A stretch of DNA of 47,834 nt, taken from NCBI GenBank assembly GCA_016217695.1, contig JACRHE010000164.1, positions 1 through 47,834 on the forward strand, in the 5' to 3' direction. Shown in pieces: positions 27,501 through 47,834 of the stretch. Each line of letters starts with the position of its first letter. Within the stretch, counting starts at the first letter, position 1. This DNA comes from Nitrospirota bacterium. GTDB lineage: Bacteria; Nitrospirota; Thermodesulfovibrionia; Thermodesulfovibrionales; UBA6898. The notes beneath the pieces were generated by a model that saw only the letters and a list, made by a program, of their open reading frames with translations, ran no database searches and was not told where the DNA came from. The translations under genes were made by a program, and so were the position numbers.

Positions 27501-30500
27501 TGGGGTTACATCGTACCTAACATCAACCTTTCCAATAGGTGTGCTTCCAAGATAGATATAGTCAGTGACAGGCCTTCCTTCCTGGTCTGCCTCCTCTATG
27601 AGGTTTCCTGTCTGGTCATAGATGAAATATGTTGTCTTTCCGTCGACAGTCTTCTTCACCCTCTGTCCGTTGCCGTTATAGGCATATTCGCCGAGTACCT
27701 TTGAGTTTTCGACTGCCTTGATGAGCCTCTGGTTCTGGTTGTAAATGTACTGCTTCTGGTTGTCTGATATCGAATTACCGTTACTGTCGTAGGTGAAGGC
27801 AAAGGGCTTTACGCCTGTGCTTGAAATGAGTTTGTTGGCGCTATATGTATAGCTCGTTGTACCTGCCCCTGTTGTCTCCAATGTCCTGTTGCCGACAGGA
27901 TCATAACTGTACCGTATTGGTCCCCATGGGCCAGTGGCCATTGTAAGCCTGTATAAGGCATCGTATGCATAGGTCTTGGTCTTTGCCGGATCAAGGGCGT
28001 CTGTGATTGATGTTATATTGCCGACATCGTCTCTTGTGTATGAGAGCTGCTTCAGCATCCCGATATTCAGGCTGTTCAACGCCCCTCTGCTGTCATATCC
28101 CTTTGTGGTCATGATACTGTTTCCGCCAGTGATTGACGATGCCGCTCCACCGGGGTTATAGGCAATGTTTGTTATTACATCATGGGCTATAGAGTCTCTT
28201 GTCTCTGTCACCTTGACTATCCTGCCTGCCGTGTCTTTGTCATATAGAACTGTCCTGCCGCTCGGATAAGTAATGGATGACAGGCTGCCGCTTGCCGTAT
28301 AAGTATAGCTTGTAGCATATCCACGCCCGTCTATTGTCTTGGTTTCATATATAAGTCTGTTTGAATTGTCATAAGCATAGGTACTTATCCCTGACTGGTC
28401 TGTCATGGTGAGCATCTTGCCTGTTGTGTCATAGGTATATGAAATGTTCTGAGCTGGGTCAGGATAATTGATCGAGGTCAGTCGTTTCAGCAGATCGTAG
28501 GTATATCTGATGGTTATACCTGTTGCGTCTGTCTTTGTTGTTAGGTTGCCTGCTGCATCATATGAATAGGTCATCGCATGGCCTTGAGGGTCTGTCTCCC
28601 TGGCAAGCCTTCCGAGGATATCGTATTCATATGTCGTTGTATTGCCGCCTGCATCCGTTATGGCCGTGAGTTTGTCTGTTCCGCCCGTGCATGAGCCGCA
28701 TCCCGTATTGCCGTATGTGTATCTCGTCACACCTCCGGCAGCGTCTGTGACTTTGACCACCTGGTTATTAAAGTTGAATTCATAATAGGTGGTGTTTCCG
28801 TTTGCATCGGTCACTGAGGTGCGGTTGCCCTTGGCATCATAGATATAGCTGCTTGCAGTTCCGCTGGGGTCGGTTACCCTGCTCAACTGGTTGAGGATAT
28901 TGTATTCAAATTGAGTTGCATTGCCCGAAGGATCGGTCTGGGAGGTCATATTGCCCGCTGGGTCATAGGTATAGGTAGTAGTCCCTCCCGCAGGGTCGGT
29001 CGCGGTTACGAGATTATTATACTGATCATAGGCGAATGAAGTAATCCTATTGTTGGCGTCTCTCACGGAGATTATATTCCCGCGTGAATCATACTGATAT
29101 GTCGTTGCCGCTCCCGAAGGATCGGTCTGGGAGGTCATATTGCCCAGATTATCATAGGTATATAAGGTCTTCTTCCCCTCTTTATCGGTCGCGCTGGTAA
29201 CCTGACCGAAGGTATTGTAGGTATAGGTCGAAGTTTTGCCTACCGCGTCCTTGGCAGAGGTCATGTTGCCTGCCGTGTCATAGGTATAGGTGGTTGTGAT
29301 TCCTCCCGGCTCGGTAGCCGATAGGAGATTGTTGCTGCCGTCATATGTCTTGACTGTCCTGTTGCCCAGCGGGTCCGTAGTCACAAGCGGGGCATTGAGA
29401 ACAGGGTCGTACTTGTACGTCCATATGCCTCCATCTCTTTCCGTTACTGTCGCCATACTGCCTGCCTGGTCATAAGAGATTGTTTTTGTGCCAGAAGGGG
29501 TATATGAAGAGGTGACCATGCCATTGGAATCATACACGTAAGTCGTGGAATATCCTGCAGGGTCTATTTTCGAAAGCATCCTGCCGCCGGAATCATAAGT
29601 ATAATGCCATGCGTTGGCTGCAGAATCCGTAACGCCCGACAGATTGCCTGTGGCATCATAGGCCAGGGTAATCATGTTCTGCGAGCCAGAAGCCTGAAGC
29701 TGAATGAGTCTGTGCTCGGCGCTGTATGCTAACTGAATGGATCTGCCTGTCGGATCGGCTATAGTTATGAGGTCGTTATTGCTGTATGTCAGGGTCGTGA
29801 TGTTTGCATTCCTGTCTTTGACGGAGGCGAGCTTGCCTGACGAGTCGAAATGGTAGATCATCCCTTCTTTGGTTGAAAGGTTATATGTACCATCGGGATT
29901 ATTAACCAATGTCGAATGTTCTCCTGAGCTGGCCTCAGGTATATAAACATTTCCGTTTGATTTGAAGAAAACTCTCTTTCCGTCTTCTTTCATGAGTGTC
30001 AAGGAGCCAAAGCCCCTTGTAATGTTCATATTGTAATTATGCGTCCATCTCTTACCTAAAGGGCCGGTATAGGCGTCTTTTGAGTTATAGGCAATTGAAA
30101 ATGATAGGCCGTGGGGCATAGACAATATGTCCTGAGAGTGATAAAGATTGCCGCTTTCTAAATTGGCTGAAGATCCCATTGAAGTACTGTTGGGTGAACA
30201 TGCCAGCTCAGCTTCACCAATCGTTATTTCAGTAGACCACAAATAATATTTATCCATCCTTCCTGCAGGTGCGACTGCAATATAAAAAATGTATTGCCCG
30301 GGCGGAAAAGCATTTAGCGGAATATTTCCGAAAAGACCTTCATCAATCGGGCCAATAGTCTCCGACCGCCATGGTTCAAGCGCTGACTGTAAGGCATTGT
30401 TTTTTCCTATCATCAATAGCCCAGGGTATACATATGCGGGCGGCTGAATCCCAAGATATATATCTACGGGGCCTGTAAATTGCAAAAAACTAAGATAAAG

Positions 30501-31652
30501 ACTCAGGTTACCGTCAATGTACGCACCATTATCGGGGCTGCCAATGTTGCCCAGTGCAAGGGGCCGTGCTAGAAAAGGATCAGAATTCAGAGCAGGACTA
30601 ACCATAGGAAGGTAATCTATATAGGAAGTTTGACCAGTAGGAACTTCCATGGCATCATCAAATCTAGCTGTAATGGTAATATCTTCAGTCAGAATAATTG
30701 TGCAAATATGCTCGATGTCGCCGGTTTCGGTGTAAATATCTTCTGCGATGTCGCAGTTGTCTGACCATTCGGTAAATGCTGAATTGATATCTCTTTTGGC
30801 TGTCAGCGTTACCTGGGTATTGGAGGCGAAGATTGCCTCACAAGCACCCCCACTGCTGCCACAATCGATTCCTTCAGGAATACTTGTAACCGTACCCCAT
30901 CCTCTTACGCCGAATCCTTCCACATTCACATTGAGTTTAGGCTTGAGATTGAAGATGGCGGCTACTGGAGGTATTTCGGCATTTATCGTAACTTCACAAA
31001 TTGTGCCTGCTTCCATTCCACCGCAGTTCTCCCAACCGCTAAACTCGGACTTCTCGTCAGGGATGGCTTCGAGTACTACAGCAGTGCCCACATCGTGCAT
31101 TTCTGTACATATGCCATCGCATAAAATGCCGGGAGGCTCTATCCAAACCGTACCTGTTCCAGTGCCTGTGCTGGTGGTCACCGTAAGCTCGTATTGCGAA
31201 GTTATTCCAGTCCCCAATAAAAGTAGCTCTCCACCCGCATAAATGTTGGTACGATAGCACCCGGTGGCCCAGTCGCAACTATAAATATATGCCGGAATTA
31301 TTACATATGCTGTTCTGAGCGGATTAGCATATGCTGGTAGGGGCAAGGGTGAAAATTCAATATGGAATTCACAGACGTCGCCATAATATAGGACATTACC
31401 GCTGCAGTCATCGAAATCTATTGTAAAGTCATAGTAATTTGAGCCTGTTATGTTGAGTTCCGGGTACACTTCCACAAATGTGTTTGGAAGTGTATTTGTG
31501 AAAGTGAACCACGCACCTGAAGTGCCTCCAATGTTGACCTCGCCAAAGTCATAATAAGCCGCAATAGCGCTGTCGACAGACATAAAAAACATTAAAGCAA
31601 TAAAAAAGATGCAGAGCGATACTAAATTCTTTGTCTTATTTTTTGTCTTCAT
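24591..31652 (-). CDS. Giant exported Rhs/YD-repeat protein with zincin C-terminal toxin
   Basis: This 2353-residue protein starts with a Sec signal (residues 1-32) behind AAGGGG. Domains in order: an ASPM/Hydin-like beta domain (about 33-150), two or three Listeria-Bacteroides-type repeats (about 155-330), a DUF6531-like start of the Rhs shell (about 495-580), many YD repeats such as YTYDTAGNMTS (about 580-1310), three OmpL47/Ig-like repeats (about 1390-1650), a ThuA-like plus helical region (about 1680-2110), and the Rhs core (YYYHTDHLGTP to PIGLTDTNG). The last 136 residues carry HEMGH (2307-2311), an HExxH zinc site, as in M91-type Rhs effectors. The long insertion between YD repeats and core is unusual. 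An overlapping downstream gene is the likely immunity partner. A c-di-GMP riboswitch lies upstream. Confidence 0.93.
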   Translation of the reverse strand: MKTKNKTKNLVSLCIFFIALMFFMSVDSAIAAYYDFGEVNIGGTSGAWFTFTNTLPNTFVEVYPELNITGSNYYDFTIDFDDCSGNVLYYGDVCEFHIEFSPLPLPAYANPLRTAYVIIPAYIYSCDWATGCYRTNIYAGGELLLLGTGITSQYELTVTTSTGTGTGTVWIEPPGILCDGICTEMHDVGTAVVLEAIPDEKSEFSGWENCGGMEAGTICEVTINAEIPPVAAIFNLKPKLNVNVEGFGVRGWGTVTSIPEGIDCGSSGGACEAIFASNTQVTLTAKRDINSAFTEWSDNCDIAEDIYTETGDIEHICTIILTEDITITARFDDAMEVPTGQTSYIDYLPMVSPALNSDPFLARPLALGNIGSPDNGAYIDGNLSLYLSFLQFTGPVDIYLGIQPPAYVYPGLLMIGKNNALQSALEPWRSETIGPIDEGLFGNIPLNAFPPGQYIFYIAVAPAGRMDKYYLWSTEITIGEAELACSPNSTSMGSSANLESGNLYHSQDILSMPHGLSFSIAYNSKDAYTGPLGKRWTHNYNMNITRGFGSLTLMKEDGKRVFFKSNGNVYIPEASSGEHSTLVNNPDGTYNLSTKEGMIYHFDSSGKLASVKDRNANITTLTYSNNDLITIADPTGRSIQLAYSAEHRLIQLQASGSQNMITLAYDATGNLSGVTDSAANAWHYTYDSGGRMLSKIDPAGYSTTYVYDSNGMVTSSYTPSGTKTISYDQAGSMATVTERDGGIWTYKYDPVLNAPLVTTDPLGNRTVKTYDGSNNLLSATEPGGITTTYTYDTAGNMTSAKDAVGKTSTYTYNTFGQVTSATDKEGKKTLYTYDNLGNMTSQTDPSGAATTYQYDSRGNIISVRDANNRITSFAYDQYNNLVTATDPAGGTTTYTYDPAGNMTSQTDPSGNATQFEYNILNQLSRVTDPSGTASSYIYDAKGNRTSVTDANGNTTYYEFNFNNQVVKVTDAAGGVTRYTYGNTGCGSCTGGTDKLTAITDAGGNTTTYEYDILGRLARETDPQGHAMTYSYDAAGNLTTKTDATGITIRYTYDLLKRLTSINYPDPAQNISYTYDTTGKMLTMTDQSGISTYAYDNSNRLIYETKTIDGRGYATSYTYTASGSLSSITYPSGRTVLYDKDTAGRIVKVTETRDSIAHDVITNIAYNPGGAASSITGGNSIMTTKGYDSRGALNSLNIGMLKQLSYTRDDVGNITSITDALDPAKTKTYAYDALYRLTMATGPWGPIRYSYDPVGNRTLETTGAGTTSYTYSANKLISSTGVKPFAFTYDSNGNSISDNQKQYIYNQNQRLIKAVENSKVLGEYAYNGNGQRVKKTVDGKTTYFIYDQTGNLIEEADQEGRPVTDYIYLGSTPIGKVDVRYDVTPPTTAIAVGEPKYQSGGMIYISASAAISLSATDPGENPSGVNYTEYRLNDNALWTRYTAPFSLNGYSEGSHRISYRSIDKAGNIEEPKTLTVTLDIMAPSSSISAGMPQYRRENALYIGGNTPITILASDTGSGVGKIEYAVDNGSYAPYAGPITLSALQDGTHTIKHRATDNVLTTETEKLFTVILDKTPPETAISASDELTDGGVNTVSPKTRFFLGSADAGSGIKEILYRIDNGNWNTYLAGFPLPSVAGEHTIGYKAIDTLGNEETEKTLTVRMIVIDLASGLSLEPVLLAGAWGSTPSTQTAVSNLISILQASGLNYYIPQTEDEFKVSMRNGRFNTYLLVDFKTDGLTDELREAVNYGEGLVYIKTLPNALPSLQEVFGVDFNGMSTNKDLIVNLNESPISSLSTLQSKGKVVKTTITATTAQALGSVTDKKESYPVIIMNQYGRGKAVLFSFDLLNSLDKAKASSLIVNSLNYVVPEERFTRALGDEPIRITLNNSSEPVEIQVTETLPSQTTADSVKPAATQTGNPIQWSLSLSANGKKTLGYWLNLPDMAGDYQIGTELRYSNHGLYRLYGNYSLTITVANSSAELLHQVIAALQAWPVAGDAATHVAAALDYLTLITDHQGITKTEAQLNLSNILSAIKELEQVSADVAAIRLALDELLKIWQAKWNLSVSVVSPVERYRLAYETDARKLEKEVAQSKKPVLVASAGSLSGLMSSTASIEVLYYYHTDHLGTPIMMTDGKGEKVWEGEFLPFGEAYSITGPATNNLRFPGQYYDEETGLHYNWHRDYKPQVGRYIERDGAGFAGGMNLYSYAANNPIGLTDTNGMKIDASKAGRLEYALVTVAGTSRGFVLYDALKSSSNTFTLFETSVGKPEYRESIRTIRLNPNLKVKIHVTQKSGGQCEEKYASLARQLAHEMGHAYGQETGTAYLNDELLNIIDNENPVAKAIGELERIDTWVTYE

Positions 31653-33591: not shown

Positions 33592-34518
33592 TCACACCCA
33601 GTAGGTTACCTCTTTACGGGGCGAATCCATATTGACTCCCGTATCGAGGTTCCAGTTTTTGACGGTTTCCTTTAGCGTTATACTCGATCCCAACATTGAA
33701 TAGAGCAATCTCCAGACTGTGACGACATTGCTGACAGCCTTCTCGAATCCTTCCCCTTTGAACGATCCTGTTGTGCCGTCCGGCAGCCTGACCTCCTGAT
33801 AGTATTTCTTATGAAATTGCGGGTACCTGGAGATTATCTCGGCTTTTGTCCTATAGAGGTATCCCTCGGCCACCCCAAGATGCCTGAACAATGCCACAAC
33901 GTCTGAACCGCCCTCGGCTGTATCGACAGCCTTCGTGTAGGTTTCAAACCAAAGGCCCGGGTGCGCTTCTTCTTCCTTATCCTGATAGTTCTTCGACACT
34001 TGATCTTTCCAAAACCGCATTAACTCATCAAAGTATTGAGAGCTGCCGCAGAATTTCAGGGCGGATGAGAATTCGGCATAGTAGATGTCGTTGTTCTTGT
34101 ATTCGTTAAAAAGCAGGGAATCCTGGGTCATCTCGCAGAGCCGGTGTTCTTCCTTGTTCTGCTCGTAGGGACCGACAGTGGCCTGGACAATGGGATGGAT
34201 GGTGGCGTCGGCTACCAGATGCGAGATATATCCCATAAGCCATACGAACTTGATTTCGTCGGCTAGACTCGGCAAGGGCTGGAAGGACTTCAGGGCCTCG
34301 TATCCGCTTGCCGCTATGCTGTTAGTCTTCTCATAATGCATAACGTCCGCCCAGTTCACTCCGCCGGTCTTCAAACTCAAATAGGGCAAGTCCGGGCTGG
34401 CCGCACCAAGAAACAGGAATTCCGAGTGTTTGTTTAAGAGACGATACAGGTCCAGTTTGAGCGTCTGGCTCCGTTTTGCTACGTCACAGATCAGGAAATG
34501 AGTAAATGCCCCTGCCAT
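33592..34518 (-). CDS. Zinc-dependent phospholipase C-like protein 1
   Basis: The 308-residue protein has the pattern of the zinc-dependent phospholipase C family: MAGAFTHF at the start, then SPDLPYL, WADVMHY, GYISHLVADATIHP and EEHRLCEMTQD. The His and Asp in these motifs would ligate the metals. There is no signal peptide. The end, NWNLDTGVNMD...YWV, matches the paralogue at 37222-38184, showing common descent. ATG 34518 overlaps the previous stop by one base (TAATG). It sits in a run of exported or membrane genes (36826 to 33165). The substrate is unknown. Confidence 0.82.
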   Translation of the reverse strand: MAGAFTHFLICDVAKRSQTLKLDLYRLLNKHSEFLFLGAASPDLPYLSLKTGGVNWADVMHYEKTNSIAASGYEALKSFQPLPSLADEIKFVWLMGYISHLVADATIHPIVQATVGPYEQNKEEHRLCEMTQDSLLFNEYKNNDIYYAEFSSALKFCGSSQYFDELMRFWKDQVSKNYQDKEEEAHPGLWFETYTKAVDTAEGGSDVVALFRHLGVAEGYLYRTKAEIISRYPQFHKKYYQEVRLPDGTTGSFKGEGFEKAVSNVVTVWRLLYSMLGSSITLKETVKNWNLDTGVNMDSPRKEVTYWV

Positions 34519-37221: not shown

Positions 37222-38184
37222 ATGCCCGGAGCTTTTGCGCACATGATCGCCGCCGACCTGGCAAAAACCAATTTGGAGGCAAATAAAATAAGGCTTCCGA
37301 CCTTGATACTTAATCGCCACCCCCAATGGCTTCAGGCTGGAGCTGTGGGGCCTGATTATCCCTATCTTCATCACGTTCTAACCAGTCATGACAAATCCGA
37401 CAGCTGGGCAGATATCCTTCACTATACAAGGACCGGTGATGTCGTGCGCACTGGGGTAAAGCTCATGCGGGAAAGGTATCAGGCCGAAAAAGGAGAAAAA
37501 AACTTTCAACGGGCTCTTGCGTGGCTTTATGGATATTCATCTCACGTTATTCTTGATGCCAGTATTCATCCTGTTGTCAGATCCATAGTCGGAGAATATG
37601 AAGATAACAAACCCGAGCACAGAACGTGTGAGATGTATATGGATTCATATATCTACAAAGAAACTTATGCTGTCGAACTGGATAACAGTGAATGGTCGGA
37701 TTATTTGAGAGCGTTGACGGATGGCAAGTCAGGCGGAATGGATGAGTCTGTGGTTAAGCTCTGGGATGCAATGCTTTTAGAGGTTTATCCTGAGGATTAC
37801 GCAAAGAACCCCCCACTGATTCATGAATGGCACAAAGCATATGTGAAAAAGCTCGATTCGGCGGATGTGAGATTGGGATTTTTCCGGCATATGGCCGCTG
37901 AGAATGGGTTTGTATACGCGCTGAGTTCCGAGATACCCCCAAACAAAAAGAAAGAATACATTGATAAGGCCACCGTCCCTGAACATAATAGATTCGGAAA
38001 GCAGATCATGAGATATGAGGAGATCTTCGATTTCGGGGTGAAGAACGTGGCTAAGTTCTGGAAGTTGATAACGGAAACGGTCGAAGGTGCCGGGGATACA
38101 AACCTTGCCGGATTATTAAACTGGAATCTCGATAAAGGAACCGTAGACCCAAAAGGAGAAGGCGATGCGACGCTCTGGGTATAG
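37222..38184 (+). CDS. Zinc-dependent phospholipase C-like protein 2
   Basis: This 320-residue protein is a paralogue of the one at 33592-34518: MPGAFAHM, GPDYPYLHH, WADILHYTRTGDV, GYSSHVILDASIHPVV and EHRTCEMYMDS align in order, and both end with NWNLDKG...LWV-type residues. The His/Asp set is kept. No signal peptide is seen. AGGAGG precedes ATG 37222. It overlaps the following lipoprotein gene by 20 bases. The orientation is opposite to paralogue 1, so the pair flanks the membrane-protein block as an inverted duplication. Confidence 0.83.
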   Translation: MPGAFAHMIAADLAKTNLEANKIRLPTLILNRHPQWLQAGAVGPDYPYLHHVLTSHDKSDSWADILHYTRTGDVVRTGVKLMRERYQAEKGEKNFQRALAWLYGYSSHVILDASIHPVVRSIVGEYEDNKPEHRTCEMYMDSYIYKETYAVELDNSEWSDYLRALTDGKSGGMDESVVKLWDAMLLEVYPEDYAKNPPLIHEWHKAYVKKLDSADVRLGFFRHMAAENGFVYALSSEIPPNKKKEYIDKATVPEHNRFGKQIMRYEEIFDFGVKNVAKFWKLITETVEGAGDTNLAGLLNWNLDKGTVDPKGEGDATLWV

Positions 38185-38971: not shown

Positions 38972-39795
38972 TCAGGTTGACAGTTGCAAAGTAGAGGTTT
39001 CAGCATTTTGTTCCATGTATTCAGCCGGTGTCAAGTCTCCCAGCGCATCATGAGGCCGTTGCTCGTTATAATCGATTATCCACCAGTATGTTGTTTCTCG
39101 GACTTCCGTTAAGCTTTCAAACAAATAGAGGTTCAGAACTTCCTCCCTGTAGGTCCGGTTGAACCGCTCAATATAGGCATTCTGATTCGGCTGCCCAGGC
39201 TGGATATATCGTATCATCATACCTGCGGCTTCAGCCCAACTCACAAACTCACCACTTAGGAACTCAGGGCCATTATCAACCCGAAGCACATCCGGTAGGC
39301 CACGGGTCAGCCCTAGTCGCTCAAAAACCCTTATAAGCCTCTTCGCTGTTAAAGAGGTGTCGATCTCGATGGCAATTGCCTCTCTGTTGAAATCATCGAT
39401 TACGGTGAATGCTCTGAACCGGGTCCCCGCATACAGTGCATCGCTTACGAAATCAGCAGACCAGACATGATTTGGCCGCTGTGGCACCATCAAGGGCTGC
39501 CGTGTTCTCTTCGGCAGTCTCTTTTTAGCCCTGCGCTTCTGGTTCAGTTTCATCTGACAGTACACTCCATAAATCCTCTATGATTCCAAGGGTATTTCTT
39601 CTGTCTCAGGAACTTGCGACACTTCCAGAAACCCCATGTTGCATGCTTCTCTAATACACCACTGATTGCCATAATGACTTCGGCATCTCGATCAGCGCTT
39701 GACCGTGTGCCACTGTAATAGGCCGCCAGGGATAATCCGATGCTCTTGCAACTTCTCTGCACTGACAGGCTGTGCTCTGCTACCAGATACTGCAC
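38972..39795 (-). pseudogene. IS3-family orfB transposase, frameshifted
   Basis: OrfB holds the DDE domain. The first part (39795 to about 39580) encodes YLVAEHSLSVQRSCKSIGLS; the second (39565 to 38972) encodes the catalytic region with D in VWSADFVSD, D in RVDNGPEF and E in NAYIERFNR. The join is a one-base frameshift near PWNH: the normal continuation (RIYGVYCQMKLNQ) is found in the next frame. Either the copy is dead or the base is a sequencing error. Confidence 0.85.
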
Positions 39796-39818
39796 TGCCT
39801 CACGCTTTTCAGATGGCC

Positions 39819-40085
39819 TTACAACTTTTTTTCAATCAGATCCTTCAACGCCCTGTTTTCAAGCGCCAGATCAGCATACATTCGTTTCATCTGGCTCAAT
39901 TCCCGTTCAATATCTTTCATCTTCTTCAGATCAGATGCCTCCATCCCCCCATACTTCGATTTCCAGTTGCAGTGGGTCTGATCGCTGATCCCATGCTTGC
40001 GGCATAGGTCCCTGACTGGTACTCCGCTGTCCGCTTCTTTCAGGACTGCCACGATCTGCGTCTCGGTAAATCTCGTCTTCTTCAT
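39819..40085 (-). CDS. IS3-family orfA (HTH)
   Basis: The 88-residue protein is the DNA-binding OrfA: MKKTRFTETQIVAVLKEAD, then an HTH (VRDLCRKHGISDQT), and a leucine-zipper helix (ADLALENRALKDL). In active elements a programmed -1 shift between orfA and orfB makes the OrfAB transposase. AGGAGG-type sequence lies upstream of ATG 40085. Confidence 0.9.
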   Translation of the reverse strand: MKKTRFTETQIVAVLKEADSGVPVRDLCRKHGISDQTHCNWKSKYGGMEASDLKKMKDIERELSQMKRMYADLALENRALKDLIEKKL

Positions 40086-40268
40086 TTAGAACCTCCTGAC
40101 TGTTATTGTGCCAGAAAGCTCTACTTATCAGGTGTCTACTTCTTAGGGAAGCTTACGCATGTAGTGGGTCAGTTTGATTTTTATTTGTGACATTGACATT
40201 TCTGACAGTAGTCTATATTTTATTACAGTATCTTTCATGGCTTTTATTTGTTCTTTGGAGGGACATTA

Positions 40269-41210
40269 ATGGGTCTTGATTTACAGCTTGCCTACTTACT
40301 TTCTCTTATTGGTGCTTTCGGTTTTCTTGGTGGATTTATTTCTGCAATATATGACCTTCAAAGTTCTCCTCCAATAGCAGTTGAACATGGGGCTATCATT
40401 GACTGTAGTGATTGTAAATGGAAATTTTCTTATTTATTTGAAAAAAAACGCATTGTTTGGACTTTCTTAGGCAGGGGGTTGATTGGTATCGCTGGCGCTT
40501 TTAGCATTATGTTGGTAGGTCTTTGGGTCGGTAAAATTACCGTGGATATGACTCAAGGCAATCAAATATTTATTATTAGTTTAGCTTTGGTTTCTGGGAC
40601 CATAAGCTATAGAATGCTACCTAAAATTGGTCACAAACTTGAAGAACAAATACTGAAGCAGAAAATGGAAGAAACGGAGCGATCTGCCAAGACAGAATCA
40701 AAAAAGGCAGTAGATTTTTCATCGGCCATGAGTGCAGCAGAAACGGCACTTAGTAGAAATAATTTTTTCGAGATGCCTCAAGCCATAGCTATGTTGGAAG
40801 CCCTGCGGCCAGCATTTCCCTCACATCGGACGCTTCATATTTATCTGGGCCGACTTTATAGAATGGGCAAGAAGTTTGATAAGGCAATACTGGTGCTGCG
40901 AGATTTTATCAACGCATTGGAAATAGAAAAATCTAAGGGTGTGGCTTCAGCATCTTACGATGCAGATACTGCTGCTGCTCATTACAATATTGCTTGTTAC
41001 CACGTGCTGAAGGCTTTTCAGCCTGAAGTATCAGAACAAGGGAAAAATCGTCTTATCGTAGAAGGTATGAATGATTTAAAAGAATCACTAAAACGATATC
41101 CGACTGGAATAGAAAAAGCAAAAGATGATGATGATTTCAAGTTTGTTAAGGATAATCCCATTTTTCAAGCTTTAACTAAAAAGAGCCATGAAGATGTCAT
41201 TTCTCCTTGA
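40269..41210 (+). CDS. Membrane protein with C-terminal TPR-like domain
   Basis: The start chosen is ATG 40269, with GGAGGGA eight bases upstream, giving 313 residues. There are four or so membrane helices (about 6-27, 62-90, 98-118), with a CSDC pair near residue 46 that may bind metal, then a cytoplasmic helical part (about 140-313). That part contains TPR-like repeats (LHIYLGRLYRMGKKFDKAIL, HYNIACYHVLKAF). It ends with a strong terminator at 41364. No family is recognised; scaffolding is the usual role of such layouts. Codon use is AT-rich compared with neighbours. Confidence 0.7.
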   Translation: MGLDLQLAYLLSLIGAFGFLGGFISAIYDLQSSPPIAVEHGAIIDCSDCKWKFSYLFEKKRIVWTFLGRGLIGIAGAFSIMLVGLWVGKITVDMTQGNQIFIISLALVSGTISYRMLPKIGHKLEEQILKQKMEETERSAKTESKKAVDFSSAMSAAETALSRNNFFEMPQAIAMLEALRPAFPSHRTLHIYLGRLYRMGKKFDKAILVLRDFINALEIEKSKGVASASYDADTAAAHYNIACYHVLKAFQPEVSEQGKNRLIVEGMNDLKESLKRYPTGIEKAKDDDDFKFVKDNPIFQALTKKSHEDVISP

Positions 41211-41363
41211 CAAGAAGAAAGTATCTTCTATACTGTAAGTGTAAGGGAAAATTGGGTCAGCAAATATAGAAGAAATAGGGAGGCAGCACTATGAAATTAT
41301 TGAAGGAATGGGGGTTTTAACGGATATACTATAAAAGGTATAATTGTTATAAACCTAAACTTC

Positions 41364-41402
41364 AAAACCCCCGAATACATTGAATCTATTTGGGGGTTTT
41401 TT
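41364..41402 (+). terminator. Rho-independent terminator
   Basis: AAAACCCCC, an 18-19 base loop and GGGGGTTTT, followed by TT. It ends the plus-strand transcript of the membrane TPR gene, about 155 bp past its stop. Confidence 0.75.
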
Positions 41403-41539
41403 CGATGAATTACAGTAATTTTAATATATCCTCAACGTCCCAGACATGATCCGTAACCTGCTTCCATGGCGGGGGTATCTCTCGATAGTGTCAAGAATCT
41501 TTCGCACATTTGATCTGGTGGGACCTCAACTGGTTTGCC

Positions 41540-41819
41540 CTACGCTGCCAATTCCCTTGCCTGATCTTCAAGCCGATCCATCTTCAGATACTGTCTCAGT
41601 CCCACTTTGTCCCTGTGATATGCCTGAGTCTAGCCGCCACCAGCATAAGCGCTGAGTTGCCGTCAGGGAATGCCCCTACCACCCGCGTCCTTCTTCTGAT
41701 CTCCCTCATGATCCTCTAAGGGGATTATTCGTCCGAATCCTCCTGGTGATGCTCTTCAGGGAAGGCATAGTAGCTCAATGTCTCCTGTATTCCTAAGCGG
41801 AAATAGTTAATCTGAAGGT
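41540..41819 (-). pseudogene. IS256 (Mutator)-family transposase remnant
   Basis: Reading the minus strand with two or three frame changes gives the C-terminal part of an IS256-type transposase: TLSYYAFPEEHH, RRIRTNNPLE-like, REIRRRTRVVGAFPDGNSA, LMLVAARLRHI, then RQYLKMDRLEDQ and a stop. No single frame is intact. Both ends of the element are gone. It lies just past the MBL gene at 41859, so it may have disturbed that gene's 3' end. Confidence 0.85.
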
Positions 41820-41858
41820 GTTCCAGCAAGAAACAAGACCCCTCTGCACCTCATGCTT

Positions 41859-42737
41859 TCAGAGTGCCGATATACTTGCCATAGGTGTTGGGCATCTTCT
41901 TATTATCCAAAAAATCGACGGAATAACTTTTCTCGGAAGGACATAAATGTGCGTCTGCCCGGGATCGCATTCCAGTGCAATATGGCCAGCAGAATTCTGA
42001 GTAATTGTGTTATAACCCGCGTAGTAATTCAGATCCTTGGATGGCGCTTCACCTATTATTACTACCTTTGGTTTCATAATCTTGAGCCAGTCTTCTGGAA
42101 TTTTGCCGGAGTCTCTGCCATGATGAGGCGCGAATACTACATCAGCTGGAGCCATAGTAATTTTACCCTTTATCTTTTCCATGAAATTCGTTTCCATATC
42201 ACCCATCCAAAGGACTGTCGCTCCATCCTTCAGGCTATATTGGATTATGGGAGAGATATTATTTGGACTGCTTCCCTCCTTGGCTTTCTTCAACTCATCC
42301 TTGTAATCCTCGCCACTTGTGACGGGCCAGAGAATCCTGATTCCAGCACCGCCCCGCTGCTCGTCCGTTTCGTTCAACCACGCTCTCGAACATCCTTGAA
42401 AAAGATAAAAAGCTTTTCCCGCATCATCCCTAAGAGCACAGTATTCATCAAAATCATCGGTAGGATCTGACTTTGTGGCCTCGTTCTTGACGCAGTAAAA
42501 ATTACGGATCGGCATCTTTTCATTAAGATAAGCTAAACCCAGAATATGGTCATCGTCAGGGTGGGTTGAAATAAAGCGTGTTACATTTTTGCCCTTAGAT
42601 TCTGCTTTAAGCTCTTTGATTATTTCTCTTCTTTCCTGATCAGACATACAGCAATCAATAATTGTAAAACTGTCAGTGCCATGCTTGATATAAAACATAT
42701 CCCCTTCGCCGACGGAAAATGATTTGACAATGCTCAC
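41859..42737 (-). CDS. ComEC-like metallo-beta-lactamase (MBL) protein 1
   Basis: This 292-residue MBL-fold hydrolase has the motif HPDDDH (59-64), D180 in LWMGDME, and PHHGRD (204-209), the pattern of ComEC/Rec2-type domains. It has no signal peptide or membrane helix. The start ATG 42737 overlaps the stop of the metallophosphoesterase gene by four bases (ATGA), so the two form a unit. The C-terminus looks frameshifted: one extra T in a T6 run (41889-41894) would give LDNKKMPNTYGKYIGTLKA with a stop at 41851, which looks more natural than the ending read here (RRCPTPMASISAL). Substrate unknown; a nuclease or phosphodiesterase is likely. Confidence 0.85.
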   Translation of the reverse strand: MSIVKSFSVGEGDMFYIKHGTDSFTIIDCCMSDQERREIIKELKAESKGKNVTRFISTHPDDDHILGLAYLNEKMPIRNFYCVKNEATKSDPTDDFDEYCALRDDAGKAFYLFQGCSRAWLNETDEQRGGAGIRILWPVTSGEDYKDELKKAKEGSSPNNISPIIQYSLKDGATVLWMGDMETNFMEKIKGKITMAPADVVFAPHHGRDSGKIPEDWLKIMKPKVVIIGEAPSKDLNYYAGYNTITQNSAGHIALECDPGQTHIYVLPRKVIPSIFWIIRRCPTPMASISAL

Positions 42738-43870
42738 TTTATGGCCTTACGCACGGTACCGCTCTGATCGACGCACATGCATTGAATACTCGGGTTCTCC
42801 CCCATATCGGTCTCGATCTCAATGAAGGTGATGGCCATGCCCCGATCAAGATAGCATGATCCGGCATTATATACATCCACTCCTAGCCGGCTTGTTTTTC
42901 CTTCGTCCTGATGGTGGGTGTGACCAAAGACAAACCAGCGCGGAGGTTTTTCGTATCCACAGAATTTTTCCAGGTAGTATTCGATGTTGAGGAGCTGTTT
43001 TGAGGAGATTTGCTTGCCCTTAATGCCTTCTCCGGAAAAAATAAGCCTTAGTAACCAGTCGCCACATTTGTTTTTGAGCTTCTTGAGTTTGTTGCCAACT
43101 GCGTCAGGGCCGACTATGACATTCACCAAGCTTCGCCAGAATATTGTGAAGGAAACGGCATTGGCTACAGTCTGGTATTGCGCAGTCTCGATGAATACCC
43201 TGCGTTTAGCCTTTTTTATGTCCGCTGGAGATGCAAGCTCCCGAAAATGGTCAGAGAGGTTATTGAAGCCAGTCTGCGTAGGATCCAAGTAATGCCCGTG
43301 GGTGAGAACCATCATCTCTTGCTCCTTGCCGAAGAGGATCTCATGGTTGGGATACTCGACGACGACTTGATCTTGTACACCGTAGGGTCGGAATATCCCC
43401 GCAATAAACGATTCCATGCCTATCCACTTATACTTCATCAAAGGGGTGGGCACCGAACCCATTGGTTTTCCATCAGAGAGCACATCTGTGCACACAACTG
43501 TCGTAGCAAGCATGTCCCAGATTTTATAATCGTGGTTGCCAGGCACGTAGTACCAATTTTTGGCGAGTTCCTTCAATCCCTGAGGCGGTTCTTTCTGCTT
43601 CATCAAAGAGTCAAGTGCCTCAATGAATGTTCGAAACCCGAATAGGAGTTTGTCCTGACCTTCTCCAGTGGTTCCCTCAATGGATCTTGTAAAGGTAGAC
43701 AGATTGATATCGAGCAAATCGCCAATAAGTACGATTTCCTCCCAGGGCGCACGAGAGACCATGTATTTGATGAGAGCGCTATTGAAACGCATGTCATTGA
43801 TAGAACTCTCGGGCGTTCCAAAGTGCATATCACTTAGAACAAGGTATCGAGCTTTCACATCATCCGTCAT
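42734..43870 (-). CDS. Calcineurin-like metallophosphoesterase
   Basis: The start chosen is ATG 43870, with AGGAGG six bases upstream; a GTG at 43885 is an alternative. The 378-residue protein has the standard dimetal motifs: D14-x-H16 (LSDMHFG), GD (50-51, LIGDLLD), GNHD (111-114), HGHYLD and FGHTHH. Insertions between motifs are longer than in the minimal fold. It has no export signal. It is the first gene of the minus-strand arm of the conjugation island and is translationally coupled to MBL 1. Phosphoesterases of this type act on nucleic acids, cyclic nucleotides or phosphoproteins; the target is unknown. Confidence 0.9.
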   Translation of the reverse strand: MTDDVKARYLVLSDMHFGTPESSINDMRFNSALIKYMVSRAPWEEIVLIGDLLDINLSTFTRSIEGTTGEGQDKLLFGFRTFIEALDSLMKQKEPPQGLKELAKNWYYVPGNHDYKIWDMLATTVVCTDVLSDGKPMGSVPTPLMKYKWIGMESFIAGIFRPYGVQDQVVVEYPNHEILFGKEQEMMVLTHGHYLDPTQTGFNNLSDHFRELASPADIKKAKRRVFIETAQYQTVANAVSFTIFWRSLVNVIVGPDAVGNKLKKLKNKCGDWLLRLIFSGEGIKGKQISSKQLLNIEYYLEKFCGYEKPPRWFVFGHTHHQDEGKTSRLGVDVYNAGSCYLDRGMAITFIEIETDMGENPSIQCMCVDQSGTVRKAIK

Positions 43871-43929
43871 ATCAAGCCTCCTCACGCTGTTATGGGGTAA
43901 TTATTTCTTACTACTCGATAGCCATAATA

Positions 43930-43943
43930 ATGTACAAGTACAT
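43930..43943. promoter_or_regulatory. Perfect dyad in the divergent control region
   Basis: ATGTAC-AA-GTACAT is a perfect 14-bp inverted repeat, 60 bp from the metallophosphoesterase start and 168 bp from MBL 2. It is a candidate operator shared by both arms. No regulator gene is in view. Confidence 0.4.
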
Positions 43944-44049
43944 AGGGGTTCATAACAAGATGGCCTATTTTCGGTACTCAGCAGGATTATTAGTCTGAGC
44001 ATCGATCTCTGCCCCGGGCCCCTGTTCTCAAGAAATTTGCAATACAATA

Positions 44050-44079
44050 TTGACATTTTACTACATATTGTGGTTTAAT
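44050..44079 (+). promoter_or_regulatory. Sigma70-like promoter for MBL 2 and the E2-E1-JAB gene
   Basis: TTGACA (44050-44055), 18 bases, TTTAAT (44074-44079). The start of transcription would fall near 44086, about 25 bases before ATG 44111. Confidence 0.55.
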
Positions 44080-44110
44080 CGCTACGTAAACACAAGATAT
44101 GGGAGGGAAT

Positions 44111-45298
44111 ATGACTGCAAATATAACTTTTTTCCCGGTCGGCAATGGCGATATGACGTTGGTTAAGCTGGGCGATTCTGATGAAACGGCCATTCTTATA
44201 GACATCAATATCCGAAATGCTGCAGACGACGATGACGACGACGCATGTGATGTTGCTGCAGAACTGCGGAAACGCCTAAAAAAGAATTCGAAAGGACGCC
44301 CTTATGTCGATGCATTTTTATTGAGTCACCCGGACCAGGACCACTGTAACAGCCTCCAAAAGCACTTCCACCTCGGACCGGTCGACGAGTACGAGGATGA
44401 ACCCGAAGAAGGCGAAGAACTTAAAATTTTCATCAGGGAGATGTGGTCATCTCCCATGATTTTCCGTCGTGCCAGCAAGAATAACACGCTTTGCGAGGAG
44501 GCAAAGGCCTTTCAGAAAGAGGCAAGGCGTCGCGTTAAAGTATACAGAGACAAGAATGGGACCGAGATAGAGGAAGGCGATAGAATAAAGATAATCGGAG
44601 AGGATGAAAACGGCAAAACGGACGGACTGGAGAAAATTATTGTAAAGGTCGATGAAACTTTTTCAGAAATCAACGGCAAGAACAACAGTTACGTTAGTAT
44701 TTACGTCCTGGGGCCTGTACCCAAACAGGAACTCGAAGAAGACGAAGAAAAAATAGCCAAAAACCACTCCAGCGTTATCCTGAGGTTTTCACTTTCCTCC
44801 AGCAGAGGAAAGAAAGACGCCTGTCTATTTCTGACAGGCGGTGATGCTGAAGTTGCGATATGGGAGGCCCTTTGGAAAAAACACAAGGATAACGCCGATT
44901 GTCTCAAATATGATATGTTGTTATCGTCGCACCACTGCTCCTGGCACGTGCTTTCCTATGATTCCTGGAGCGACAGCGAAGACCCTAAAGTCAACGCCGA
45001 TGCGAAGGCAGCGTTATCGCAGACTATTGAAGGGGCTTTTATAATTTCCAGCAGCGTGGCTATTAAGGATGATACCGCTGATCCCCCGTGTATGGGCGCG
45101 AAAGACGAATACATCTCCATTCTTAAATATGACAAGGAACGTTTTTTCTGCACGGGCGAGCACCCCAGTGAAAAAAATAACGAGCCCTTGGAATTCTCGA
45201 TAACTGACGAGGGACCCCAGCCGCCGGCTAAAAAGAAAGGCCCGTTTATGGCAACCGCCGGCATCATGACTTCGAGAGAACCCCTGGGGCATGGGTAA
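44111..45298 (+). CDS. ComEC-like MBL protein 2, cognate partner of the E2-E1-JAB protein
   Basis: The start chosen is ATG 44111, behind GGGAGGG (44101-44107); an in-frame ATG at 44099 has no ribosome site. The 395-residue protein opens ITFFPVGNGDMTLVKL, has the MBL motif HPDQDH (73-78) and LLSSHHCSW further on, and a long acidic run (five or more Asp near residue 40). A flexible tail rich in Pro and Lys (PQPPAKKKG) ends in LGHG. Its last eight bases overlap the E2-E1-JAB gene, so the two proteins are co-translated. The terminal Gly is a possible activation site for the partner E1. The closest relative in view is MBL 1. Confidence 0.88.
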   Translation: MTANITFFPVGNGDMTLVKLGDSDETAILIDINIRNAADDDDDDACDVAAELRKRLKKNSKGRPYVDAFLLSHPDQDHCNSLQKHFHLGPVDEYEDEPEEGEELKIFIREMWSSPMIFRRASKNNTLCEEAKAFQKEARRRVKVYRDKNGTEIEEGDRIKIIGEDENGKTDGLEKIIVKVDETFSEINGKNNSYVSIYVLGPVPKQELEEDEEKIAKNHSSVILRFSLSSSRGKKDACLFLTGGDAEVAIWEALWKKHKDNADCLKYDMLLSSHHCSWHVLSYDSWSDSEDPKVNADAKAALSQTIEGAFIISSSVAIKDDTADPPCMGAKDEYISILKYDKERFFCTGEHPSEKNNEPLEFSITDEGPQPPAKKKGPFMATAGIMTSREPLGHG

Positions 45299-47612
45299 GA
45301 GGGGGACGGCCAAAGAGCGTCGCTCGTCAGATCCTGCGGACAAGCCTCCGGCTCCTGTTCAAGAAGCATTCCGTTTGATCGCTTCACATAGGGCTATAGT
45401 CGCTGACAGCGTTAAATCACCTGTCCTTATAAAAAAAGGAATCTATCGGATAGAGGCGGTTATTGAAGTGCCGCTACCGTCTCGCGTCAGGAATAAGGGA
45501 ATCAGCAAAACCGGAGTTAAAGCCCGTGAACCGATCATCCTGGACTTTCCCAAAGAATATCCCTTCTTATCACCAACCGTTAGACTCAGGAAGGATTTCA
45601 ATAGGTCTCTGCCTCACATAAATCCCGGAAGCCCCGACAGCTATGTTCGGCCGTGCATTTTCGAAGGAGATATTAATGAACTATTACATCAGGAAAACGG
45701 TATTTACGGGATTCTCGATCAGCTTTCCGACTGGCTACGAAAAGCGGCGGCGGACCAGTTAATAGACCCTAAGCAGGGGTGGGAGCCTATCCGTAGAGAT
45801 GACTTCCACGGGGTTCTGTGCTTCGATGCAGACAAGCTGCGGGGGTATGTATCACGGGATGAGGGCTTCGTAACGTTCCTTTGTGGTTTCAGGAGTATTC
45901 CTGCTTATTTTATGGGGTTCGTCCTCGAAAATGAGATTTCGAAACATATTATTTACAAAGCAAAAAAAGTCGGCGTCAAGACGCAGGATGGAATAACGGG
46001 CGGCGTTACTATGGGCATATTGTCTTGGCCGCCGGCTTTTAACACTGATAAGACTCCTTTGACAACTGACGCCTACCTGCCCGAAACAGTAATGACATTG
46101 AGGGACCTGCTCGACCGTGCAAAATCGTATGGCAATTACAAGAGTCTGAATGAACGGATTCAAGAAATTTATCTTCAGATCCGTCAAGAGAAGGGCGACG
46201 TTCCCGATGGCTTCATGCTGGTAGTCATCCTGTGTGCCCGACGTCCATTTAATCTCATCAAGGAAGATTCAAATCTAGAACTTATTCCATATTTGATTAA
46301 ATGCAAGAGGGCAAATGGGCCACTCCTTAATATTGACCCTGATTCTCCCGTATACTGGCTTGGGCACAGACATCGGTTAAGTACAAGTCTTTTGAGAAGA
46401 ATGTCAGGCAGTCGCAAGAGTGCTGTCAACGCTCCAATCATTCAAATAGGGTGTGGAAGTGTCGGGTCCAAAATAGTCCTCCATCTGTCGAGGGCGGGCC
46501 ATGGACCATTTACGTTGATTGATAATAAGCTTCTGTCACCACATAACGCAGCGCGACATGCTCTCATCGATATTAATGAATTCACTGTTTTTAATAACAA
46601 GGCAGTGGAGCTAAAGAAGGCTATATCTATTTATCCCGAGGCGAGGGCATCTACTGCGATTCAGGATAATGTCATAGGAGTCCTGAACGACCAGCAAAAA
46701 ACCAAAGAAGTTTTTCCTAAAGGCGCCGCTCTTATCATAGATTCCACGGCATCACTTGCTGTTCGCGAGGCGTTCGCAGCAACAGACAGAGACAGGTTAC
46801 CGATTCCCGTTATGCAGACGACGCTTTATTCAAATGGCGAATGCGGTGTCTGTTGCATAGAGGGCGCTTCCAGGAATCCCCGCATTGATGACATCGTGAA
46901 CAAACTCTTTGATTCCTGTATTGACGATAAGGAGCTTGCTGGGAAGCTGTTGACTGCTGAAGGCGGGGTTACCCGGCAGGCTATTGGGCAGGGATGCGAC
47001 TCTTATACGATGGTTATACCTGACACAATGGTATCTATTTTTTCCTCGGCTATGGCGGAGCGAGCGAGGCAATTATTAGAAATCGGCATATCTCCCAAAG
47101 GAGAGTTAAGTGTTGGACTTCTATCGGACGATCACCTGGGTTTAAGTTGGAAAAAATACGAGGTCGGAGAAACAGTCATACTGCGCGGCGAAAACAGATG
47201 GGAGATCAGGTTGCTCGATAATGTTGTACTTGAAATGGCGAAAGAGGCCGTGAAATGTGGATCGATCGAGACCGGTGGTGTCATGATGGGCCGATTATCT
47301 GCTGCTCGTAAATGCTTAACTATAACCAGACTTTTGCCTGCTCCTCCTGACAGCATTCGCAGTGCAAGTGCTTTTGTGCTTGGCACGGAAGGATTACGTG
47401 ACACGGTTCAGCGCACACAGAGGGCGTGTAATAATCTTTTTTGCTATGTTGGAACGTGGCATACGCACCCTCTTGGGGGCGGGCCCTCTTCGCGAGATTA
47501 TGCTGTTATGCAACGTATGAAAGAGATGAGATTGGGGGCGCCTGCTATCTGCCTTGTCTGGACACCGATAGGTTTCCATTGCGTAATGGACTCAGGCGAT
47601 TTTCGGATATAA
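45291..47612 (+). CDS. E2-E1-JAB triple-domain ubiquitin-like conjugation/deconjugation protein
   Basis: One 773-residue protein holds three enzymes of a ubiquitin-like cycle. Residues about 40-155 are E2-like, with the presumed active-site Cys122 in VRPCIFEG followed by ILDQLSDWLRKAA, the usual helix after prokaryotic E2 Cys. Residues 170-370 are a linker of unknown fold. Residues 380-600 are an E1/ThiF adenylation domain: GCGSVGSK (387-394), D411 in TLIDNKLLS, the arginine-bearing PHNAARHAL, and IIDSTAS. Candidate E1 Cys are in GECGVCC (517-522). Residues 640-773 are a JAB/JAMM peptidase: E660 (SIETGG), H724 and H726 (WHTHP), S733 and D736. All catalytic residues are intact. No ubiquitin-like gene is adjacent. 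The layout recalls Cap2 plus Cap3 of type II CBASS fused into one chain, but no CD-NTase is present. Confidence 0.93.
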   Translation: MGKRGTAKERRSSDPADKPPAPVQEAFRLIASHRAIVADSVKSPVLIKKGIYRIEAVIEVPLPSRVRNKGISKTGVKAREPIILDFPKEYPFLSPTVRLRKDFNRSLPHINPGSPDSYVRPCIFEGDINELLHQENGIYGILDQLSDWLRKAAADQLIDPKQGWEPIRRDDFHGVLCFDADKLRGYVSRDEGFVTFLCGFRSIPAYFMGFVLENEISKHIIYKAKKVGVKTQDGITGGVTMGILSWPPAFNTDKTPLTTDAYLPETVMTLRDLLDRAKSYGNYKSLNERIQEIYLQIRQEKGDVPDGFMLVVILCARRPFNLIKEDSNLELIPYLIKCKRANGPLLNIDPDSPVYWLGHRHRLSTSLLRRMSGSRKSAVNAPIIQIGCGSVGSKIVLHLSRAGHGPFTLIDNKLLSPHNAARHALIDINEFTVFNNKAVELKKAISIYPEARASTAIQDNVIGVLNDQQKTKEVFPKGAALIIDSTASLAVREAFAATDRDRLPIPVMQTTLYSNGECGVCCIEGASRNPRIDDIVNKLFDSCIDDKELAGKLLTAEGGVTRQAIGQGCDSYTMVIPDTMVSIFSSAMAERARQLLEIGISPKGELSVGLLSDDHLGLSWKKYEVGETVILRGENRWEIRLLDNVVLEMAKEAVKCGSIETGGVMMGRLSAARKCLTITRLLPAPPDSIRSASAFVLGTEGLRDTVQRTQRACNNLFCYVGTWHTHPLGGGPSSRDYAVMQRMKEMRLGAPAICLVWTPIGFHCVMDSGDFRI

Positions 47613-47834
47613 TTATTCTCTCGTTCGTAACACTGTTAGGTTTTGGAAGAAAATCAACACCCTGGAGAGGATTACCACAGTGTGGAGTATCAGGTGAATC
47701 CAATAACCTTATAGTCTGCGGCGCTATTGGGGGTTACAGGATGTACCTATCCGTCCATGTTTCGGAGCGAAGCCAATACTTCCCCCTGCCGTAGTGGCAG
47801 GTTGGCTTCAGAACAGGCAGCAGAAATCTTCCGA

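What the first reader, a model, noticed from the sequence alone, without database searches (positions are those of the whole stretch)
41851..47612. Divergent island: phosphoesterase + MBL facing MBL + E2-E1-JAB, with no ubiquitin-like gene
Seen: four genes in two coupled pairs diverge from one control region, and all catalytic motifs in the E2-E1-JAB protein, both MBLs and the phosphoesterase are intact. Established: E1, E2 and JAB enzymes conjugate and remove ubiquitin-like proteins; in type II CBASS, Cap2 and Cap3 act on the CD-NTase C-terminus; earlier genome surveys noted MBL genes beside such fusions (from memory, not checked). Inference: this is a defence system in which an MBL or an unknown protein is the conjugated partner and the MBL and phosphoesterase act on nucleic acid or a nucleotide signal. 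The double MBL and added phosphoesterase make it differ from CBASS, Bil and Bub layouts I know.
Basis: partly seen in the sequence, partly recalled or inferred. Interest (0 to 1): 0.9.

Follow-up and report, generated by a model that had tools for sequence, protein, structure and literature searches.

The report
Bacterial ubiquitin-like phage-defence gene island
A probable bacterial defence locus carries protein-tagging enzymes but no separate tag, and its relatives suggest that the missing tag is the neighbouring enzyme itself, which ends in a conserved ubiquitin-like glycine tail.

Summary
The observation largely holds: two overlapping gene pairs diverge from a 213-bp gap, with catalytic motifs present. 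The right-hand pair (MBL2, E2-E1-JAB) passes both NCBIfam cut-offs for the named two-gene "anti-phage 6A-MBL system", an operon type described in 2006 (PMC1779556). So the defence guess is likely right, but the system is not new.

Not found in print in my searches: MBL2 and its relatives end in a variable linker and a conserved glycine (PLGHG*, PRAG|VINQ, STYG|SK): 31 of 32 6A loci against 1 of 26 other MBL-like proteins, then 6 of 6 held-out loci. The same signature pointed to the conjugated cyclase in type II CBASS (PMC10097602). I infer that MBL2 itself is the conjugated protein. 28 of 32 6A loci also carry a TM protein or patatin in an effector-like position.

The left-hand MBL1 is PADLOC candidate PDC-M48B, whose relatives mostly pair with the same kinds of TM or patatin protein. 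A second MBL lies near 8 of the 31 other 6A loci; the phosphoesterase near none. MBL1's last ~26 residues are out of frame; the contig ends 222 bp after the island. No experiment was possible.

The parts
44099..45298 (+). MBL2, 399 aa, 6A-MBL MBL-fold enzyme (HPDQDH, GGDAE, HHCSWH motifs)
   Evidence: NF058524, 432.5 bits against cut-off 220; predicted fold nearest to the ComEC MBL domain 9ic4
45233..45295 (+). MBL2 residues 379-399: low-confidence (probably disordered) linker plus C-terminal tail EPLGHG (residues 394-399, 45278-45295), proposed conjugation tail
   Evidence: G399 invariant in 18 of 18; pLDDT below 50 for 379-399; tail rule 31 of 32 6A MBLs, 6 of 6 held out, 1 of 26 other MBL-like proteins
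45291..47612 (+). E2-E1-JAB triple-module protein, 773 aa (6A-MBL cap2_3)
   Evidence: NF058523, 554.3 bits against cut-off 320; Prok-E2_A 59-179, ThiF 380-493, Prok-JAB 645-744
45654..45656 (+). C122, E2 catalytic cysteine (role inferred from the family)
   Evidence: identical in 30 of 30 aligned proteins
46995..46997 (+). C569, probable E1 catalytic cysteine (role inferred)
   Evidence: identical in 30 of 30 aligned proteins
47460..47498 (+). JAB metal-site motif H724-x-H726 ... S733, D736
   Evidence: identical in 30 of 30 aligned proteins, with E660
43886..44098 (.). 213-bp divergent intergenic region, putative shared control region
   Evidence: none of the 7 promoter-like sites found in 41150-47834 lies in it
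42734..43885 (-). Calcineurin-like metallophosphoesterase, 383 aa, overlapping partner of MBL1
   Evidence: PF00149 26.1 bits against cut-off 21.5; motifs; no homologue in the other 6A loci held
41859..42737 (-). MBL1, 292 aa, PDC-M48B type MBL; last ~26 residues out of frame relative to the family
   Evidence: PDLC04673 447.7 bits, residues 1-266; 50-53% identity to 7 relatives; frames
41851..41943 (-). Family-like C-terminal end of MBL1 lying in another frame (approximate limits)

Best explanation
The right-hand pair is a 6A-MBL anti-phage module that works like type II CBASS with a metallo-beta-lactamase in place of the cyclase. Proposed steps: (1) the JAB domain trims any residues after the conserved C-terminal glycine of MBL2 (none to trim in the window copy, which ends in ...PLGHG); (2) the E1 domain adenylates that glycine; (3) the tail passes through an E1 cysteine to E2 Cys122; (4) MBL2 is conjugated through its own tail to a target, and the JAB domain can release it; (5) conjugation switches or localises MBL2, a ComEC-like hydrolase probably acting on nucleic acid or a nucleotide, and this drives a membrane-directed effector (multi-TM protein or patatin lipase in relatives). 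Shown: gene identities, motifs, tail conservation and its near-restriction to E1/E2-linked MBLs, effector-like neighbours in relatives. Inferred: all five steps, the substrate and the target. The left-hand pair is a second MBL unit (PDC-M48B) whose phosphoesterase occupies the place where most relatives carry a TM protein or patatin, so it is most likely that unit's effector or accessory enzyme; in the window the usual effector of the 6A module is absent or beyond the contig end.
For: Both genes exceed the NCBIfam 6A-MBL cut-offs. MBL2 lies directly upstream of the fusion in 4 of 4 genome loci where it could be seen; the fifth is cut by its contig end. G399 is invariant in 18 of 18 MBL2 homologues down to 31% identity, after a linker that is otherwise poorly conserved. 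Tail rule: 31 of 32 6A MBLs, 0 of 17 other MBLs, 0 of 40 neighbour genes, 2 of 32 E2-E1-JAB C-termini, 30% of shuffled tails (rule set after seeing the tails); with nine weaker or later MBL-like proteins added the control is 1 of 26. Hold-out 6 of 6. The one 6A exception, L077, has a split E1-E2 and JAB and ends in -GYA; C-terminal Gly or Ala is what Cap2 uses in CBASS (PMC10097602, passages). 19 of 32 tails carry 1-6 residues after the last Gly, as expected if JAB trims precursors. Catalytic residues invariant in 30 of 30 fusions. Model tail of very low confidence, as for a disordered end; fold nearest to ComEC. Effector-like neighbours in 28 of 32 loci, including a natural E2-E1-JAB-patatin fusion in L069.
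Against: No biochemical or phage data. The tail rule was made after looking; sequences are related (for example five enteric-type loci; held-out L089 has nearly the tail of L049). One held-out fit (L092...VVTQG) matches the rule only by a looser route although it also ends in Gly. One non-6A MBL-like protein (the weak second MBL of L046...NTLAGFVGR) also fits. Shuffled tails fit 30% of the time because the linkers are rich in Ala and Gly. One further 6A-type MBL, L064, was dropped: only an internal piece is recognisable, its end does not fit, and no E2-E1-JAB is on its 4.5-kb contig. The window copy has no recognised TM-family or patatin effector beside the 6A pair. Only 1 of 199 genomes searched, this one itself, holds the fusion over the cut-off. 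The four-gene joint function rests on one genome.
Confidence: 0.68

Rival explanations
1. The E2-E1-JAB protein conjugates something other than MBL2 (a ThiS/MoaD-like protein encoded elsewhere, or an unlinked partner), and MBL2 is only the effector or sensor.
For: Iyer et al. 2006 proposed that such systems could add available ThiS/MoaD to targets (PMC1779556, passages). No ubiquitin-like gene in the island.
Against: It does not explain why E1/E2-linked MBLs, and hardly any other MBLs, end in a conserved glycine after a free linker.
Confidence: 0.13
2. All four genes form one system in which MBL1 and the phosphoesterase process the same signal as MBL2.
For: Tight divergent layout. A second MBL lies within about 6 kb of 8 of the 31 other 6A loci and in 1 of 6 held-out loci, with a divergent layout again in virus contig L074, where TM and WYL genes lie between. 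The strict M48B family is rare at large (2 of 395 genomes of the phylum including this one; 0 of 376). M48B and 6A loci draw on the same TM families.
Against: The phosphoesterase is in none of the 31 other 6A loci. Most 6A loci show no second MBL; most M48B relatives examined show no intact 6A genes nearby.
Confidence: 0.15
3. The tail serves sulfur-carrier chemistry (thiocarboxylate) rather than protein conjugation.
For: E1-like proteins of the ThiF type also activate C-terminal glycines (recalled; weak ThiF and MoeB matches).
Against: An E2 domain with invariant Cys122 and His109 and a fused JAB protease fit conjugation and deconjugation, not sulfur transfer.
Confidence: 0.06

Closest known systems
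6A-MBL anti-phage system (NCBIfam NF058523/NF058524; row 6a of Iyer, Burroughs and Aravind 2006)
   Same: E2-E1-JAB triple-module protein directly after an MBL-fold gene; both over the curated cut-offs.
   Different: Neighbour pair MBL1 + phosphoesterase; no recognised TM-family or patatin gene beside the pair. NCBIfam gave no hit at E 0.01 or better for three TM and one WYL neighbours of relatives.
Type II CBASS (cyclase + Cap2 + Cap3 + effector)
   Same: E1-E2 and JAB enzymes; an enzyme with a conserved C-terminal glycine as candidate conjugate; in relatives, WYL regulators and membrane-directed effectors (that CapV is a patatin lipase is recalled).
   Different: No CD-NTase in the island: an MBL takes its place; no SMODS hit in this 87%-complete genome. 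JAB is fused to E1-E2. Many tails carry extra residues after the glycine.
Bil and Bub bacterial ubiquitin-like pathways
   Same: E1, E2 and JAB enzymes; the JAB-type BilC exposes a C-terminal glycine on BilA (PMC11354881, passage).
   Different: No beta-grasp ubiquitin-like gene in the island.
PDC-M48 (PADLOC phage-defence candidate, M48A + M48B)
   Same: MBL1 is M48B, 447.7 bits.
   Different: Partner is a phosphoesterase without M48A match and without a predicted TM helix, not a membrane protein or patatin.

Membership tests
6A-MBL | E2-E1-JAB protein over NF058523 cut-off | tested here: met
   554.3 against 320 bits
6A-MBL | adjacent MBL-fold enzyme over NF058524 cut-off | tested here: met
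   432.5 against 220 bits, 8-bp overlap
6A-MBL | protects against phage | not testable with these tools
   no experiment; no held paper contains the name 6A-MBL
Type II CBASS | CD-NTase in the operon | tested here: not met
   four genes only; no SMODS PF18144 in own genome, 87% complete
Type II CBASS | E1-E2 with catalytic cysteines and a JAB protease | tested here: met
   C122, C569, H724/H726/D736 invariant in 30 of 30
Type II CBASS | conjugated enzyme with conserved C-terminal Gly/Ala | tested here: met
   met by MBL2, not by a cyclase; conjugation itself untested
Bil / Bub | separate ubiquitin-like (beta-grasp) gene | tested here: not met
   no further gene in the island by ORF listing; contig ends 222 bp downstream, so only the island is covered
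PDC-M48 | M48B MBL | tested here: met
   PDLC04673 447.7 bits; C-terminal end out of frame
PDC-M48 | M48A partner | tested here: not met
   phosphoesterase has no M48A hit

The most novel reading that the evidence does not exclude
A catalytic MBL hydrolase is itself a ubiquitin-like modifier: 6A-MBL systems are 'CBASS without a cyclase', in which a ComEC-like enzyme carries a JAB-trimmable C-terminal glycine tail, is conjugated by its own E1-E2, and controls interchangeable membrane effectors (multi-TM or patatin); a simpler MBL + effector pair (PDC-M48) uses the same effector families without conjugation, and in this genome with a phosphoesterase.
Probability: 0.6. Interest if true: 0.8.

Novelty: new variant of a known kind. 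Interest (0 to 1): 0.62.

Why it matters
It would explain why an operon type with E1, E2 and JAB enzymes, described in 2006, lacks a ubiquitin-like gene, and turns that into a one-residue test. It would extend "conjugate the enzyme itself" from CBASS cyclases to a hydrolase family and tie two catalogue entries (6A-MBL and PDC-M48) together through shared effectors. Near copies of the pSE11-2 pair occur in 31 of 5426 complete E. coli genomes, so laboratory tests are easy.

Tried and rejected
Rejected: the phosphoesterase as a standard 6A component (no homologue in the other 6A loci; none in phages; one weak plasmid hit; none in virus contigs). Rejected for now: window gene 40248-41210 as the missing TM effector: no phmmer match to the TM families, hhalign probability 11.5% at best, against family TC. 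Rejected: a missed downstream effector in the last 222 bp. Fruitless: structure of the phosphoesterase from a single sequence (mean pLDDT 33, not searched further); virus-contig scans with single MBL2 and phosphoesterase sequences; M48B in 376 genomes of the class of the Paracoccus hit (where no control rang either); promoter scan (7 found against 11.0 expected).

Rows dropped before counts: of 45 loci matching the MBL core profile, 14 were dropped: L064 and its shorter copy L039 (only an internal MBL piece, no E2-E1-JAB on the contig), and 12 that repeat a locus already counted; L065, below that profile threshold, was added by its C-terminal piece, giving 32. The control of 17 MBLs required E below 1e-10 and more than 250 residues; weaker ones were looked at afterwards. 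L002 lacks its MBL because its contig ends there. L080 and L083 are the same contigs as L074 and L078 and were not counted again.

Papers on Bub, Bil and bacterial ubiquitin-like proteins named in PMC13373217's reference list were not held, so prior publication of the tail idea cannot be excluded; searches that did not show it in their listings.
Full report
Anatomy. The four genes are as described: MBL1 41859-42737(-), phosphoesterase 42734-43885(-), MBL2 44099-45298(+), E2-E1-JAB 45291-47612(+), with overlaps of 4 and 8 bp and a 213-bp gap. The window is the complete contig, 47834 bp, of a fragmented genome (3.04 Mb, 221 contigs, 87% complete), so nothing is known beyond 222 bp after the fusion gene. 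MBL1 departs from its family's frame after about residue 266; a family-like end lies in another frame and stops at 41851-41853.

Identity. NCBIfam names the right-hand pair: E2-E1-JAB = NF058523 (554.3 bits, cut-off 320), MBL2 = NF058524 (432.5 bits, cut-off 220), "anti-phage 6A-MBL system". Row 6a of Iyer, Burroughs and Aravind 2006 is such a two-gene operon of a triple-module protein and a specialised MBL (PMC1779556; passages read); that the NCBIfam label goes back to this row is my inference. Chambers et al. [quoted passage not shown] passages). No held paper contains "6A-MBL" or "PDC-M48". MBL1 is PADLOC PDC-M48B, 447.7 bits. The phosphoesterase matches PF00149 (26.1 bits, cut-off 21.5) and has only one weak PADLOC match (E 0.008).

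Distribution. NF058523 exceeds its cut-off in 1 of 199 genomes of the same family, order and class, the window's own. NF058524 exceeds its cut-off in 5 of 385 and 5 of 369 genomes sampled from the classes of the Paracoccus and Marichromatium hits, each count including the genome at the centre of the sample. On plasmids 238 records match MBL2, 230 of them over at least 80% of it. The pSE11-2 pair matches 31 of 5426 complete E. coli genomes, 29 of them over at least 80% of the query. Sporadic occurrence with many plasmid copies fits a mobile defence module.

The tail. In 18 aligned MBL2 homologues (31-56% identity to the window protein) the last residue of the window protein, G399, is invariant although the preceding linker is poorly conserved. 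A profile of the MBL core without the tail recovered 6A MBLs from the loci held. With a simple rule, [HYFA]G followed by 0-7 residues to the end, 31 of 32 6A MBLs fit, 0 of 17 other MBLs in the same data (the 17 hold the window MBL1 twice, one other locus twice, and two copies with the same Acinetobacter-type end), 0 of 40 neighbour proteins, 2 of 32 E2-E1-JAB C-termini, and 30% of tails shuffled within their last 25 residues. Nine further MBL-like proteins that were weaker or fetched later (L046, L062, L033, one each in L028 and L032; L079, L081, L082; the second MBL of L089) bring the control to 1 of 26; the fit is the weak second MBL of L046 (...NTLAGFVGR). The rule was written after seeing the tails, so I tested it on six plasmid loci fetched afterwards: 6 of 6 fit; five end exactly in Gly and one in HG|DDD; L092 (...VVTQG) fits the rule only through an earlier AG, and L089's tail is nearly that of L049. 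In the 32, 13 tails end exactly at Gly and 19 carry 1-6 residues after the last Gly. The exception, L077, has separate E1-E2 and JAB genes and ends in -GYA. A further MBL, L064, was left out because only residues 67-272 or so are recognisable and no E2-E1-JAB lies on its 4478-bp contig. In type II CBASS the same kind of evidence, a Gly or Ala end conserved where Cap2 and Cap3 are present and not in other architectures, accompanied the finding that the cyclase is conjugated, shown there by thioesters and lysine conjugates (PMC10097602, passages; see also PMC11153139, passages). BilA is trimmed by the JAB-type BilC to expose a C-terminal glycine (PMC11354881, passage).

Enzymes. In 30 aligned E2-E1-JAB proteins (of the 32 loci L077, which is split, and L065 were not in this set) E80, H109, C122, W148, G387, G389, G392, R401, D411, R422, K437, C569, E660, H724, H726, S733 and D736 are identical in all. 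C122 is taken as the E2 cysteine and C569 as the likely E1 cysteine (inference). The MBL2 model (11 sequences, mean pLDDT 76.8, pTM 0.85) has pLDDT below 50 at 379-399. Its best solved match is the MBL domain of ComEC (9ic4, E 1.2e-9, TM-score 0.45 by query length), then phosphodiesterase tw9814 and RNase J, so a phosphodiester substrate is likely but not shown.

Effector-like neighbours. Many relatives carry an unannotated third gene. Three membrane-protein families with no detectable relation to each other (TA, TB, TC; my own HMMs), one further multi-TM protein and patatin lipases fill this role in 28 of 32 loci: TA 14 (L078 and L065 weakly), TB 5, TC 5 (plus TC beside TA in L074), other TM 1 (L062), patatin 3. 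TM calls rest on a simple hydropathy scan. Seed members match by construction; 12 of the 24 TA/TB/TC loci were not in the seeds. Position varies: downstream, upstream, or divergent behind a WYL gene. L069 is a natural E2-E1-JAB-patatin fusion. The four without are the window, L075 and L076 (flanks cut) and L032 (ATPase and S8 peptidase genes upstream). In the held-out six: TA 3, TB 1 and a weaker 2-TM gene on the opposite strand 1, and a patatin by its record annotation 1. WYL regulators lie divergently in many loci.

The left-hand pair. Eleven M48B relatives were examined: nine have a TM protein (TA: L027, L029, L033, L074; TB: L031; others: L030, L035, L079) or a patatin (L081) next to the MBL; L028 has decayed JAB pieces directly upstream and a patatin further away; L082 has nothing clear. 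So M48B and 6A MBLs share effector families. A second MBL (my M48B or MBLx profile, E at most 1e-4) lies within about 6 kb of 8 of the 31 other 6A loci, L044, L072, L046, L054, L073, L074, L070 and L062 (L046 and L062 weak), besides the window; L032 has one at 9 kb; 1 of the 6 held-out loci has one. Four of these (L044, L054, L032, L073) seeded the MBLx profile. L074 has a divergent layout like the window's, with WYL and TA genes between. Strict M48B was found in 2 of 395 genomes of the phylum, one being this genome, and 0 of 376 of another sampled class; thresholds differ, so this is only a rough baseline. The phosphoesterase has no homologue in the other 6A loci held, in 198 other relatives, phages or virus contigs, and one weak plasmid match, in L034, where no MBL was found. 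By position it takes the effector's place in the M48B unit; this is inference from one genome.

Judgement. The island is a genuine 6A-MBL gene pair beside a second, MBL-based unit. The mechanism most consistent with the sequences is self-conjugation of MBL2 through its glycine tail, with JAB as trimming and releasing enzyme and, in relatives, membrane-directed effectors. It would work like type II CBASS but is not CBASS, since no cyclase is in the island and no SMODS domain was found in the genome. I cannot exclude that the tail idea is already in a paper that is not held.

Noticed in passing
window 16643-21337 (+): Four consecutive genes that look like Tn7-like transposition genes: TnsB (PDLC01737, 110 bits) and TniQ (PDLC01616, 95 bits) with two genes not searched.
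   Followed up: no
window 38972-40085 (-): IS3-type transposase pieces (rve_3, HTH_Tnp_1) just beyond the island, suggesting mobility or rearrangement.
   Followed up: no
window 40248-41210 (+): 320-aa protein with N-terminal TM segments and weak C-terminal TPR hits, convergent with MBL1; no clear match to the TM effector families.
   Followed up: partly
window 24591-31652 (-): 2353-aa RHS-repeat protein (PF05593).
   Followed up: no
window 33592-34518 (-) and 37222-38184 (+): Two zinc-dependent phospholipase C domain proteins (PF00882) within 5 kb.
   Followed up: no
L069 8454-12002: Natural fusion of E2, E1, JAB and patatin in one 1183-aa frame next to a 6A-type MBL ending GFG|SGFQ.
   Followed up: yes
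L077 7998-11518: 6A-type MBL with split E1-E2 (Prok-E2_B + ThiF) and a separate JAB-motif protein; MBL ends in -GGGGYA.
   Followed up: yes
L028 5592-6004: Decayed JAB-domain pieces of an E2-E1-JAB gene directly upstream of an M48B MBL on a Rhizobium plasmid.
   Followed up: partly
L032 3925-8690: Hymenobacter 6A locus preceded by ATPase and S8 peptidase genes instead of a TM or patatin gene.
   Followed up: no
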